A stretch of DNA of 64,000 nt from Bacillota bacterium (GTDB lineage Bacteria > Bacillota > Dehalobacteriia > UBA4068 > UBA4997). The notes below the pieces were generated by a model. The model was not told the origin of the DNA. It worked only from the letters and a program-made list of their open reading frames with translations, and made no database searches. The position numbers were made by a program, and so were the translations under genes. Shown here piece by piece: positions 27,735 through 32,032 of the stretch. Position 1 is the stretch's first letter; each line of letters begins with the position of its first letter. The stretch lies in assembly GCA_021771915.1 (NCBI GenBank), contig JAETNY010000003.1:153461-217460 (forward strand), written 5' to 3'.

Positions 27735-27763
27735 TTGACAGATTGAGCATTGTGTGAGATAAT
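27735..27763 (+). promoter_or_regulatory. Strong SigA-type promoter for nrdD
   Basis: TTGACA (27735-27740) and GATAAT (27758-27763) are exactly 17 nt apart. The start site would be near 27770, leaving a leader of about 100 nt that holds two NrdR-box-like sites. Confidence 0.75.
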
Positions 27764-27872: not shown

Positions 27873-30221
27873 ATGTTTGACAGTATTATCAAGCGTGACG
27901 GCCGTCTGGTACCCTATGATATCAGCAAAATCAGCGACGCTATTCATAAGGCTATGGAAGCCAGCGGCCGAGTCACGGAAATGTCAGAATGTGAGCGGCT
28001 GGCTCAGCTGGCTGAAGACAAGCTTTTTGCCGCTTTCCAAAGCGAGGCGCCCGGCATTGAAGATATTCAGGACACCGTTGAAACCGTGTTAATGGAAAAT
28101 GGTTACGCCATTGTGGCGCGCAAATATATAATTTATCGCTCTGAGCGCACACGCAGCCGAGAAATGAACACGCGCCTGATGCGTATTTATGACGAGTTAA
28201 CCAACACCGACTCGCTGCTTTCCGATATGAAGCGTGATAATGCCAATATTGACGGCGATACCGCCATGGGCACCATGCTGAAATATGGCAGCGAGGGCGC
28301 CAAAGATTATTATGAAAAATATGTGCTGACTCCTGAACAAAGTAAAGCGCACGCTGAGGGTGACATTCACATTCATGATTTTGATTTTTATACCCTGACC
28401 ACAACTTGCTGCCAGATTAATCTGCTGGACTTGTTCAAAAACGGTTTTTCCACCGGTCATGGCTTTCTGCGTGAGCCCAATGATATTTCCAGCTACACCG
28501 CGCTGGCCTGTATCGCCATCCAGTCCAATCAAAATGACCAACATGGCGGCCAGAGCGTACCCAATTTTGATTATTGTATGGCGCCTGGCGTGGCCAAAAC
28601 TTTCAAAAAACTTTATATCAGCAATTTTTTTAAGGCAGCGGAATTGCTTTGGCCGGAATTTCCCTTAAATTTAGCGCAAACTAAAGATTTTTTCCAAAAT
28701 TTGGCGGAACAGGACGACAATATGCAGCCGCGCATTACCCTGCACGAGCAGTTTGTACCCCGACTGCAAGCCGCTTTAAATCAGCAGCTGCCCAGCGCCA
28801 TGCCAGAGGAAATCTTTACACACTGCGCGCAATTTGCTTATGATAAGGCTTTGCAGGAAACTGACCGTCATACATTCCAGGCCATGGAAGCGCTGGTGCA
28901 TAATCTGAACACCATGCATAGCCGCGCAGGCGCGCAAACCCCCTTTTCTTCAATTAATTACGGCACCGATATTTCACCCGAGGGACGCATGGCCATTAAA
29001 AATATTCTGCTGGCCACTGAGGCCGGCCTTGGCCAGGGTGAAACGCCGATTTTCCCTATTCATATTTTTAAAGTTAAGGCCGGCGTCAGCTTTAACCCGG
29101 AAGATCCCAACTATGACCTGTTCAAACTGGCCTGCCGGGTAAGCGCAAAGCGACTTTTCCCAAACTTTTCATTTATTGACGCGCCTTTCAACCTGCAATA
29201 TTACAAACCCGGCCACCCGGAAACTGAAGTTTCCTATATGGGCTGCCGCACCAGGGTTTTGGGCAACCATTACAACCCCCAGCAGGAAATTACTTATGGC
29301 CGCGGCAACCTGAGTTTTACTTCCATCAACCTGCCGCGTCTGGCAATCAAGGCCAACCATAACCTTGATTTGTTCTTTGATGATTTGGAGCGTAAAATGG
29401 ATTTGGTAGCTGAACAGCTGCTGGACCGTTTCAAAATACAATCTCACAAAAAAGTACGCAACTTTCCTTTTTTGATGGGACAAGGCGTTTGGCTGGGTTC
29501 CCGGGAGCTGGGTATCGACGACGAGGTGGGCGAGGTTTTGAAAAACGGTACTCTGTCCATCGGTTTTATTGGTCTGGCGGAAACGCTAGTGGCGCTGACC
29601 GGCAGTCACCATGGTGAATCAATGGAATCACGCAATCTGGGGTTGGAAATTGTCAGCTTCATGCGTGAATACTGCGACCACAAGTCAGAAGAAACCGGGC
29701 TTAATTTCACGCTGCTGGCCACACCGGCCGAGGGTCTGTCAGGGCGCTTTATCCGCATTGATAAGAAAAAGTTCGGCATCATTCCCGGTGTTACCGACCG
29801 CGATTATTATACCAACAGTTTCCATGTACCGGTATATTATCCAATCAGCGCTTATGAAAAACTGAAAATTGAGGCACCCTATCATCAACTAACCAACGCC
29901 GGCCATATCTCATATGTAGAATTAGACGGCGATACCGCCAAAAATATTGAAGCTTTTGAACAAATTGTACGCTATATGCAACAAATTGGTATTGGCTATG
30001 GTTCCATTAATCACCCGGTAGACCGCGACCCCGTTTGTGGTTACAGCGGCATTATCAATGAGGTTTGCCCTCGCTGCGGCCGTCATGAGGGCGAGGGCGT
30101 AAGTCAGTCCAAGCTGCGCGCTATCAAGGCCACACTGCGCGGCAATGCTGAAACATGTGGCTATTGCGGAGATATCAATGAAGAAAATGAACGCCAGGCA
30201 AATCCCAATGCACTGGCCTAA
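27873..30221 (+). CDS. nrdD: Anaerobic ribonucleoside-triphosphate reductase, large part lacking the glycyl-radical domain
   Basis: A 782-aa class III reductase chain. An ATP-cone is at about 1-90 (IIKRDGRLVPYDISKI). The ten-stranded barrel core follows, then a zinc site of Cys732, Cys735 (CPRC), Cys762 and Cys765 (CGYC). The protein stops about 17 residues later (NEENERQANPNALA), before the usual C-terminal glycyl-radical segment RxxGYL. That segment is encoded by the next gene. AGGAGG precedes the ATG. It makes dNTPs without oxygen, with NrdG. Confidence 0.96.
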   Translation: MFDSIIKRDGRLVPYDISKISDAIHKAMEASGRVTEMSECERLAQLAEDKLFAAFQSEAPGIEDIQDTVETVLMENGYAIVARKYIIYRSERTRSREMNTRLMRIYDELTNTDSLLSDMKRDNANIDGDTAMGTMLKYGSEGAKDYYEKYVLTPEQSKAHAEGDIHIHDFDFYTLTTTCCQINLLDLFKNGFSTGHGFLREPNDISSYTALACIAIQSNQNDQHGGQSVPNFDYCMAPGVAKTFKKLYISNFFKAAELLWPEFPLNLAQTKDFFQNLAEQDDNMQPRITLHEQFVPRLQAALNQQLPSAMPEEIFTHCAQFAYDKALQETDRHTFQAMEALVHNLNTMHSRAGAQTPFSSINYGTDISPEGRMAIKNILLATEAGLGQGETPIFPIHIFKVKAGVSFNPEDPNYDLFKLACRVSAKRLFPNFSFIDAPFNLQYYKPGHPETEVSYMGCRTRVLGNHYNPQQEITYGRGNLSFTSINLPRLAIKANHNLDLFFDDLERKMDLVAEQLLDRFKIQSHKKVRNFPFLMGQGVWLGSRELGIDDEVGEVLKNGTLSIGFIGLAETLVALTGSHHGESMESRNLGLEIVSFMREYCDHKSEETGLNFTLLATPAEGLSGRFIRIDKKKFGIIPGVTDRDYYTNSFHVPVYYPISAYEKLKIEAPYHQLTNAGHISYVELDGDTAKNIEAFEQIVRYMQQIGIGYGSINHPVDRDPVCGYSGIINEVCPRCGRHEGEGVSQSKLRAIKATLRGNAETCGYCGDINEENERQANPNALA

Positions 30222-30234
30222 GGAGGATTTTAAC

Positions 30235-30402
30235 ATGACTAACCAAACAAACAAAACGACTGAAAACGACATTATGGTAGGCGAGGGCGTAGGCTTTGAG
30301 CGTATCCGCCGTATCACCGGCTATCTTGTAGGCACTCTGGACCGCTTCAATAACGCCAAACGCGCCGAGGAAAAAGACCGGGTAAAGCATAATGTCGGCT
30401 GA
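30235..30402 (+). CDS. Separate glycyl-radical subunit of the class III ribonucleotide reductase
   Basis: A 55-aa protein whose second half, RIRRITGYLVGTLDRFNNA then KRAEEKDRVKH, is the C-terminal glycyl-radical domain of NrdD, with the radical Gly at residue 29. It has its own AAGGAGG and ATG, 13 nt after the nrdD stop and in another frame, so it is not made by simple readthrough. The 3' end overlaps nrdG by 11 nt. It probably docks on NrdD and is activated by NrdG. Short NrdD-like proteins are known in databases; biochemical work on the split form is, to my knowledge, sparse. Confidence 0.9.
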   Translation: MTNQTNKTTENDIMVGEGVGFERIRRITGYLVGTLDRFNNAKRAEEKDRVKHNVG

Positions 30403-30925
30403 TTGCCAAACGCCGCCCAAACTGCGTCTGGCCGGGATTGTTAACGATTCCATTACCGACGGCCCCGGCATTCGTCTGACGGTTTTTGTGCAGGGCTGCC
30501 CTCACCATTGTCCCGGCTGCCATAATCCGCAAACCTGGGCCTTTGATGGCGGCGAAGAAACCAGTCCAGACGAAATCATGGCGCAAATTAAAAAAAATCC
30601 GCTGCTTTCCGGCGTAACTTTCAGCGGCGGCGAACCGCTGGCTCAGGCGGCCGCCCTATTGCCGCTGGCACAGCAAATCAAGCAGCAGGGTTTGGAGTTG
30701 GCTATTTACACCGGCTATACCTTTGAACAGCTGCTGCAAATGAACGACCCGTCCATAAACCGGCTGCTGGCGCTGACCGATACGCTGATTGACGGCCCTT
30801 TTATTCAGGCACAGCGCAATCTGGAGTTGAATTTCCGCGGTTCAGAAAATCAGAGAGTTCTGCAAGCCGCCGCCTCTCTGGCCGCCGGCCAACCAATACC
30901 GGAAAACGCCGAACGCTGGCATTAA
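30392..30925 (+). CDS. nrdG: Anaerobic ribonucleotide reductase activating protein
   Basis: A 177-aa radical-SAM activase. The cluster motif is CPHHCPGC (Cx3Cx2C), preceded by ITDGPGIRLTVFVQG and followed by HNPQTWAFDGG and the TFSGGEPL SAM segment. It generates the glycyl radical on the class III reductase, here presumably on Gly29 of the small subunit. The start lies inside the end of the small gene, which points to coupled synthesis. Confidence 0.95.
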   Translation: MSADCQTPPKLRLAGIVNDSITDGPGIRLTVFVQGCPHHCPGCHNPQTWAFDGGEETSPDEIMAQIKKNPLLSGVTFSGGEPLAQAAALLPLAQQIKQQGLELAIYTGYTFEQLLQMNDPSINRLLALTDTLIDGPFIQAQRNLELNFRGSENQRVLQAAASLAAGQPIPENAERWH

Positions 30926-30934
30926 AATCTATCA

Positions 30935-30979
30935 AACAAAAGGTGACTAACCAATTTGGCTAGTCACCTTTTGTTTTTT
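30935..30979 (+). terminator. Terminator of the nrdD operon
   Basis: AACAAAAGGTGACTA pairs with TAGTCACCTTTTGTT (15 bp) followed by TTTT. Confidence 0.88.
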
Positions 30980-31543: not shown

Positions 31544-32008
31544 TCAATTTTCTTCTTTGCTTTCCATCATTTTATGTATCTCCTGCAAAAATGTTTCCAC
31601 ATCTTCAAATTTACGATACACCGAAGCAAAACGCACATAGGCTACGTCATCAACCGCGCGCAGCCTTTCCATCACCATATCGCCAATGCGCATGGCCGGA
31701 ACTTCTCTCTCCGCAGAATTTTTGAGTTCCTTTTCAATATCAGCCACAAGCTGCTCCAAAACCAGCGCCGGCACAGGACGCTTATCACAGGCGCGCACCA
31801 AACCGGCCAAAATTTTGGTTTTATCAAAAATTTCCCGGTTGCCATCACGCTTAACTACCAGCAGGTTAGTTTCCTCCACTCGCTCATAGGTGGTAAAGCG
31901 CTTACCGCAACTTAAACACTCCCGGCGCCGCCGAATACTGCGCCCATCTTCCACCGGCCGGGAATCCAGAACTTTAGAGTCAGGATGACCACAAAATGAA
32001 CAGCGCAT
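31544..32008 (-). CDS. nrdR: Transcriptional repressor NrdR
   Basis: A 154-aa NrdR. The zinc ribbon is Cys3, Cys6 (MRCSFC), Cys31, Cys34 (CLSCGKRF), followed by an ATP-cone domain (VVKRDGNREIFDKTKI). It senses ATP/dATP and represses ribonucleotide reductase genes. The ATG at 32008 gives the canonical MRC N-terminus; a TTG three codons upstream is too near the AAGGGGG site. Its upstream region is the 87-bp tandem repeat. The nrdD operon with NrdR-box-like sites begins about 4.2 kb away. Confidence 0.95.
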   Translation of the reverse strand: MRCSFCGHPDSKVLDSRPVEDGRSIRRRRECLSCGKRFTTYERVEETNLLVVKRDGNREIFDKTKILAGLVRACDKRPVPALVLEQLVADIEKELKNSAEREVPAMRIGDMVMERLRAVDDVAYVRFASVYRKFEDVETFLQEIHKMMESKEEN

Positions 32009-32032
32009 AACAGACAATAACCCCCTTAATGA

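What the first reader, a model, noticed from the sequence alone, without database searches (positions are those of the whole stretch)
27873..30925. Class III ribonucleotide reductase with its glycyl-radical domain on a separate 55-aa gene
The nrdD chain ends just after its zinc site (Cys732/735/762/765) and lacks the RxxGY radical segment. The next gene has its own ribosome site and frame and encodes exactly that segment (RRITGYL, Gly29, then RVKH). nrdG overlaps it. So the enzyme is probably a three-part system in which the radical carrier is a small exchangeable subunit, comparable in idea to YfiD of pyruvate formate-lyase. A small subunit could be made in excess or replaced after oxygen damage.
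Basis: partly seen in the sequence, partly recalled or inferred. Interest (0 to 1): 0.85.

Follow-up and report, generated by a model that had tools for sequence, protein, structure and literature searches.

The report
Anaerobic DNA-precursor enzyme with detached radical
In this bacterium's only detected ribonucleotide reductase, the short segment that likely carries the catalytic glycyl radical sits on its own 55-residue gene and would have to join the main chain after both are made, an arrangement that recurs in many other anaerobes and might let cells replace only the oxygen-sensitive piece.

Summary
The nrdD chain (27873-30221) stops before the radical segment; a 55-aa gene (30235-30402), with its own ribosome site and frame, encodes exactly that segment. 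Gly29 aligns with the radical glycine of the solved P. copri enzyme. It is not an error: the 8 other genus genomes searched show it, this genome has no second nrdD, and none of the 9 has a detectable class I or II reductase. One detail is wrong: Cys762/765 are not the zinc site but lie in an extra tail that the fused relatives compared lack.

It is not unique. Detached NrdD radical domains occur in several NrdD subtypes: Bacillota, Kiritimatiellota, Victivallis vadensis, a viral contig, and 33 of 42 Spirochaetota genomes with an NrdD hit. Some are unlinked or multi-copy; six Bacillota genomes, Heliophilum fasciatum among them, have one beside an intact NrdD (candidate spare parts, like YfiD of pyruvate formate-lyase). 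All 46 genomes tabulated with a complete GRD-less NrdD (13 Bacillota, 33 Spirochaetota) have a separate radical-domain gene. Five searches of the open-access library found no description. In-trans assembly, activation by NrdG and exchange after oxygen damage are inferred, not tested.

The parts
27735..27763 (+). sigma-70-like promoter TTGACA-17-GATAAT upstream of the three genes (consensus match only)
   Evidence: 11 of 12 matches, TG before the second hexamer
27873..30221 (+). nrdD catalytic chain, 782 aa, ATP-cone (res 4-93) and barrel, without glycyl-radical segment; Cys179/180 and Cys458 present
30090..30218 (+). extra C-terminal tail of nrdD (residues 740-782) with Cys762/Cys765, absent from the fused relatives compared; inferred docking segment
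   Evidence: dN/dS 0.241/1.224; AF2 low confidence
30220..30226 (+). ribosome-binding site AAGGAGG of the small gene, overlapping the nrdD stop codon
30235..30402 (+). 55-aa gene for the detached glycyl-radical segment (FERIRRITGYL...RVKH); Gly29 codon 30319-30321
30392..30925 (+). nrdG, radical-SAM activating enzyme, overlaps the small gene by 11 nt
30934..30976 (.). 20-pair stem-loop after nrdG, terminator-like; listed by the scan on the - strand, and a T run also follows the stem on +

Best explanation
The 55-aa gene encodes, behind its own ribosome site, the glycyl-radical segment that the neighbouring class III ribonucleotide reductase chain lacks, and it is predicted to act as a separate radical-carrying subunit. 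The likely steps: NrdD (ATP-cone, barrel, radical Cys458) and the small chain are made from one mRNA; the small chain docks where the fused domain would lie, probably helped by the extra NrdD tail; NrdG makes the radical on Gly29; the radical passes to Cys458 and starts ribonucleotide reduction. Shown: the gene layout, the missing and supplied segments, conservation under purifying selection, no other reductase found, and the match between GRD-less chains and separate GRD genes. Inferred: docking, activation, and that oxygen would destroy only the small chain.
For: Complementary Pfam coverage 1-531 and 533-562. Own genome has no other NrdD; class I/II reductases (PF02867) in 0 of 9 genomes of the genus, control ringing in 11 of 14. 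Split in 8 of 8 other genus genomes (six of them are the genomes of loci L021-L026). 45 adjacent pairs (of 46 tried): gaps 3-814 nt, phases 13/19/13, best candidate start has an SD of 4 nt or more in 41 of 45. dN/dS 0.067/0.986 for the small core, 0.095/1.327 for the body (6 loci). Gly29 aligns with the P. copri radical glycine. 13 Bacillota genomes with GRD-less bodies (11, G000 and G004) and 33 Spirochaetota genomes (each read) all have a separate GRD gene.
Against: No protein-level or biochemical evidence. The window genus is known here from unnamed or metagenome assemblies only. AF2 gives the NrdD tail low confidence (block means 35-51 beyond residue 730), and no complex could be modelled. 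GRD-less bodies do not form one clade, so the tail's role is inferred from few lineages. Heptad test of my own: strong for small-chain N-termini of one Spirochaetota subgroup (12 of 12, p up to 0.011), weak for the body tails (2 of 12 under 0.05). No account of such an enzyme was found in print to lean on.
Confidence: 0.85

Rival explanations
1. Sequencing or assembly error, or a decaying pseudogene, splits a normal nrdD.
For: The window genome is a 47-contig assembly, and one fragment could in principle carry an indel.
Against: All 8 other genus genomes held show it, L021 being 99% identical; gaps differ between species; the small core has dN/dS about 0.07; no other reductase was found in the genus genomes.
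Confidence: 0.02
2. Programmed frameshifting or ribosome hopping joins both reading frames into one chain.
For: The genes are only 13 nt apart in the window.
Against: Gaps of 3-814 nt, all three phases, an SD before the best candidate start in 41 of 45 pairs, an nrdG-like gene between the two in G114, G149 and G207, and unlinked GRD genes.
Confidence: 0.03
3. The small protein is only a repair part, as YfiD is for pyruvate formate-lyase, and NrdD has another radical carrier.
For: Solo GRD genes coexist with intact NrdD in 6 Bacillota genomes.
Against: In the window NrdD has no radical segment of its own; the tail has no RxxGY motif. So here it must be the working subunit, whatever it is elsewhere.
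Confidence: 0.04
4. The two chains are ligated after translation (split intein or similar).
For: Split RNR genes in phages often involve inteins or introns (PMC3653736, passages read).
Against: A 43-aa tail and a roughly 15-20-aa N-terminus leave no room for intein halves (recalled sizes); no intein family among the Pfam hits of the two chains. Not searched for specifically.
Confidence: 0.02

Closest known systems
Class III (anaerobic) ribonucleotide reductase NrdD/NrdG, e.g. Prevotella copri NrdD (PDB 8p23)
   Same: ATP-cone, barrel, radical Cys, second Cys, glycyl segment, radical-SAM activase.
   Different: One chain there; here the glycyl segment is a separate gene and NrdD has an extra tail.
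YfiD/GrcA and T4 Y06I, spare parts of pyruvate formate-lyase (PMC8683613, passages read)
   Same: A small free-standing glycyl-radical domain used in trans by a large glycyl radical enzyme.
   Different: NrdD-type domain (PF13597), not PF01228; in the window it is the only radical segment rather than a repair part. That paper says spare parts for other enzymes are possible but only the two for pyruvate formate-lyase are validated.
Split phage RNR genes (PMC3653736, passages read)
   Same: An RNR gene in pieces; nrdD was the commonest in phages (6 cases).
   Different: The passages mostly describe introns, inteins or endonuclease genes between the pieces; here the break is at a domain border, with separate starts, across bacterial lineages.
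Small subunits of other glycyl radical enzymes (benzylsuccinate synthase, hydroxyphenylacetate decarboxylase; recalled; PMC12590467 seen in a search listing only)
   Same: Extra small subunit.
   Different: Those small subunits do not carry the radical glycine (recalled).

Membership tests
Class III ribonucleotide reductase (NrdD) | NrdD barrel with radical Cys and second Cys | tested here: met
   PF13597 1-531, PRK07111 above cut-off; Cys458 in MGCRTR, Cys179/180
Class III ribonucleotide reductase (NrdD) | Glycyl-radical segment in the same polypeptide | tested here: not met
   Supplied by a separate gene
Class III ribonucleotide reductase (NrdD) | Zinc ribbon before the radical loop | tested here: inconclusive
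   Cys722/732/735 invariant in the 38 rows of A3, fourth position Asp719 also invariant; metal binding untested
Class III ribonucleotide reductase (NrdD) | Cognate activase NrdG nearby | tested here: met
   TIGR02491 148.7 bits against cut-off 126.1
Class III ribonucleotide reductase (NrdD) | Glycyl radical formed and ribonucleotides reduced | not testable with these tools
   needs EPR and assay
YfiD/GrcA autonomous glycyl radical cofactor | PF01228-type glycyl radical domain | tested here: not met
   Small chain hits PF13597, not PF01228
YfiD/GrcA autonomous glycyl radical cofactor | Coexists with and repairs an intact parent enzyme | tested here: not met
   No intact NrdD in the window genome. 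Coexistence is met in G067, G083, G109, G144, G182, G208; repair untested
Intron- or intein-split phage RNR | Intervening mobile element at the break | tested here: not met
   13 nt between stop and start, nothing inserted

The most novel reading that the evidence does not exclude
Class III ribonucleotide reductase is in many anaerobes a three-part enzyme whose glycyl-radical domain is an interchangeable protein: cells swap an oxygen-cut small chain for a fresh one, extra solo copies serve as spare parts even for intact NrdD, and in the window's NrdD subtype the split state is ancestral with the fused form arising by re-fusion.
Probability: 0.3. Interest if true: 0.92.

Novelty: new variant of a known kind. 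Interest (0 to 1): 0.78.

Why it matters
Ribonucleotide reductase makes DNA precursors, and the anaerobic class is ruined by oxygen because its backbone breaks at the radical glycine. If that glycine sits on a 45-100-residue exchangeable chain, damage would cost the cell a tiny protein rather than a 90-kDa enzyme. It would also give a natural handle on class III chemistry: radical domain and barrel could be mixed, mutated and labelled separately. The question raised for pyruvate formate-lyase, whether spare parts exist for other glycyl radical enzymes (PMC8683613, passages), becomes directly testable. Current annotation hides it: of the 120 best small proteins listed in each most have no name, and the named ones include hypothetical protein, anaerobic ribonucleoside-triphosphate reductase and a few unrelated names.

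Tried and rejected
Programmed frameshift, assembly error, pseudogene and ligation were considered and rejected (see rivals). One origin of all splits: rejected for the 8 long-tail bodies of the window's subtype by AU test (p 2.8e-5; the group was chosen from tail similarity after the first tree had been seen). That the tail is a degenerate copy of the radical segment was considered, not tested. Counting split genomes from the genome search open_frame column failed: it reads through stops, so I first took ten Spirochaetota genomes, and one Victivallis nrdD, as fused that proved split on reading the sequence. G015 looked GRD-less without a partner, but its nrdD runs off the contig end. The first L091 'GRD' hit at 2288-2470 was spurious. 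Foldseek of the Selenomonas-type small protein: no match better than E 0.033. The viral-contig scan gave only 3 loci. Literature: five searches and passages from PMC3653736, PMC11226230, PMC11528403, PMC8683613, PMC12288474, PMC9531940, PMC4390871, PMC2795772, PMC3019208 gave no account of a detached NrdD radical domain in bacteria; subscription journals and preprints were not searched.

Full report
What is in the window. nrdD (27873-30221, 782 aa) matches the NRDD Pfam profile from 1 to 531 of 562; the next gene (30235-30402, 55 aa) matches 533-562; nrdG (30392-30925) overlaps it by 11 nt. The ribosome site AAGGAGG of the small gene overlaps the nrdD stop, and its ATG is in frame +1 relative to nrdD. 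A promoter-like site (27735-27763, 11 of 12) lies upstream and a 20-pair stem-loop (30934-30976) follows nrdG (consensus matches only, 9 promoter-like sites found against a shuffled mean of 4.5), so the three genes look like one operon. The profile of 14 small proteins aligns to residues 709-738 of the P. copri NrdD chain in the PDB (E 1.3e-9), putting Gly29 on its radical glycine.

Zinc site. P. copri has C-x2-C...C-x2-C; the window has Asp719, Cys722, Cys732, Cys735 there, and all four are invariant in 38 aligned sequences, window included. Cys762/765 lie further on, in a tail (about 740-782). The fused relatives printed and one search run straight from CPxC into the radical segment without it. 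A search with residues 740-782 alone found 8 proteins; the most distant (E 2.6e-3) is named Hydrogenoanaerobacterium, species name cut off in the listing (saccharovorans is my completion), and its NrdD also ends in this tail without a radical segment. I did not see its neighbouring gene.

It is real and very likely essential. The genome (98.55% complete) has no other PF13597 hit. Each of the 8 further genomes of the genus has a GRD-less body and a separate GRD hit. PF02867, the class I/II reductase family, is absent from all 9 (controls ring in 11 of 14; 21 of all 53 genomes searched lack it). Over 6 loci of the genus, dN/dS is 0.067/0.986 for the small core, 0.095/1.327 for the body, 0.241/1.224 for the tail and 0.502/1.210 for the small N-terminus. 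For 46 adjacent loci from several NrdD subtypes a script placed the small gene in 45 (L144 was missed by its motif): the gap runs from 3 to 814 nt, phases 0/1/2 are 13/19/13, and the best candidate start has an SD of at least 4 nt in 41 (starts were chosen for their SD, so this figure leans upward, and near-copies are among the 45).

How widespread. The 55-aa query returned 7,999 proteins at E <= 0.01, which is the candidate cap, within 0.55-1.75 times its length. Of the 80 named loci nearest to the window's nrdD, 13 show the body followed by a separate GRD, one (L067) is cut at the contig end, and 66 read as fused by motif. The 13 come from Bacillota, Spirochaetota and Kiritimatiellota records, all metagenome-assembled; six of them (L021-L026) lie in genomes already counted in the genus. 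In a whole-genome search all 13 have both parts, two also a second, fused NrdD. The cultured Victivallis vadensis DSM 14823, searched with them, has two fused NrdDs, one split NrdD with an adjacent GRD, and an extra solo GRD on another contig.

Sample of the window's phylum (Bacillota, by its named relatives): 163 of 199 genomes had a PF13597 match (its match table was cut, so counts are lower bounds). 49 of these were searched again. Eleven there, and G000 and G004, have a body whose match ends at profile position 530-540; each of the 13 has a separate GRD, all read in sequence. They belong to at least three NrdD subtypes: FERIRRITGYL (window type), SRVVGY/F...WNxGK (G114, G149, G181, G207) and SIERVRRVTGYF (G038, G084, G157). 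In G100, G062 and G175 the GRD gene lies on another contig; in G062 and G175 it is followed by an nrdG-like gene (recognised by eye), and G175 also has a fused NrdD. The G100 body ends in ...FERIHRITE, a stop inside its own radical segment. Six genomes (G067, G083, G109, G144, G182, G208) have a fused NrdD and an extra solo GRD; G083 has two and, by identical proteins and contig lengths, is Heliophilum fasciatum. G144 and G109 keep the solo gene beside similar neighbours. Some further bodies are cut by contig ends (G187) or are distant family members and were not counted.

Spirochaetota sample: 42 of 80 genomes had a match. On reading the sequence, 33 are split, 7 are fused (G246, G249, G259, G262, G266, G271, G282) and 2 (G292, G293) are distant relatives that I did not read. 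All 33 have a separate GRD ORF. In G251, G260, G264, G272 and G318 the GRD found is not adjacent to the body (in G318 the body ends at the contig edge, so a neighbour may be missing); G261, G264, G283, G305, G307 and G318 have two or three copies.

Forms of the small chain. The window's type is a bare 50-67-aa segment. Solo types of 85-106 aa carry an N-terminal module; 11 columns are invariant in 13 sequences, all in the radical segment. AF2 of a Selenomonas member gives a beta-alpha-beta-beta module (block means 83-91) and a poorly defined radical segment (50-65); no PDB match and no Pfam or NCBIfam family above cut-off for the module in 5 proteins. In one Spirochaetota subgroup the small chain starts with a heptad helix (12 of 12, p up to 0.011) and the body ends in a charged helix-like tail (only 2 of 12 pass). 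This suggests coiled-coil docking but does not prove it.

Evolution. On a FastTree of 103 bodies cut before the tail, split (25) and fused (78) need 9 changes, at least 6 forced by well-supported branches. On a 37-row IQ-TREE of the window subtype, 7 changes, at least 4 forced; the 8 rows with the long homologous tail are not one clade (AU p 2.8e-5). Starting the subtype as split costs 6 changes, as fused 7; if re-fusion counts double, both cost 7. So a split ancestor with re-fusions is at least as parsimonious as repeated splitting; transfer of the tail between lineages is not excluded. The choice of rows affects this.

Mechanism and limits. In P. copri NrdD, dATP makes the radical domain disordered and blocks substrate binding (PMC11226230, abstract and passages); in a split enzyme the same switch could act on docking of the small chain (inference). 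Oxygen cleavage at the glycine (stated for class III enzymes in PMC3019208, passage) would then cost only the small chain (inference). At least one viral contig carries it too: L150 (IMG/VR) has a body and a 62-aa radical ORF that overlap. Nothing here shows a protein, a complex or a radical.

Noticed in passing
L129 4591-5160 (Eggerthella phage EL753P1, OP172808.1): Phage nrdD without radical segment, then a short ORF annotated hypothetical, then a GRD-like stretch whose reading frame changes just before the glycine; described only.
   Followed up: partly
L150 1-2468 (IMG/VR contig): Viral contig with split NrdD: 760-aa body and 62-aa radical ORF overlapping by 4 nt. L151 has a tailed body with no radical ORF found in the fetched stretch.
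   Followed up: partly
L154 687-2903 and L153 1605-1982 (Victivallis vadensis DSM 14823): A split NrdD with adjacent radical ORF and a second, solo radical ORF of very similar sequence on another contig, beside two fused NrdDs of the genome.
   Followed up: partly
L110 (G019): An NrdD-family frame that ends in a thioredoxin/glutaredoxin-like domain (TCPNCPVAK...), judged by eye.
   Followed up: no
L145 (G207:C1:2208930-2213138): NrdD body in a 1547-aa open frame with large insertions, possibly inteins; followed by an nrdG-like gene and a detached radical ORF.
   Followed up: no
window 31544-32017 (-): NrdR-like regulator (recognised from memory) downstream of the nrdD operon on the other strand.
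   Followed up: no
L142 / L141 (G100): NrdD whose own radical segment is cut by a stop, with a 90-aa solo radical-domain gene on another contig: a possible recent takeover by a spare part.
   Followed up: partly
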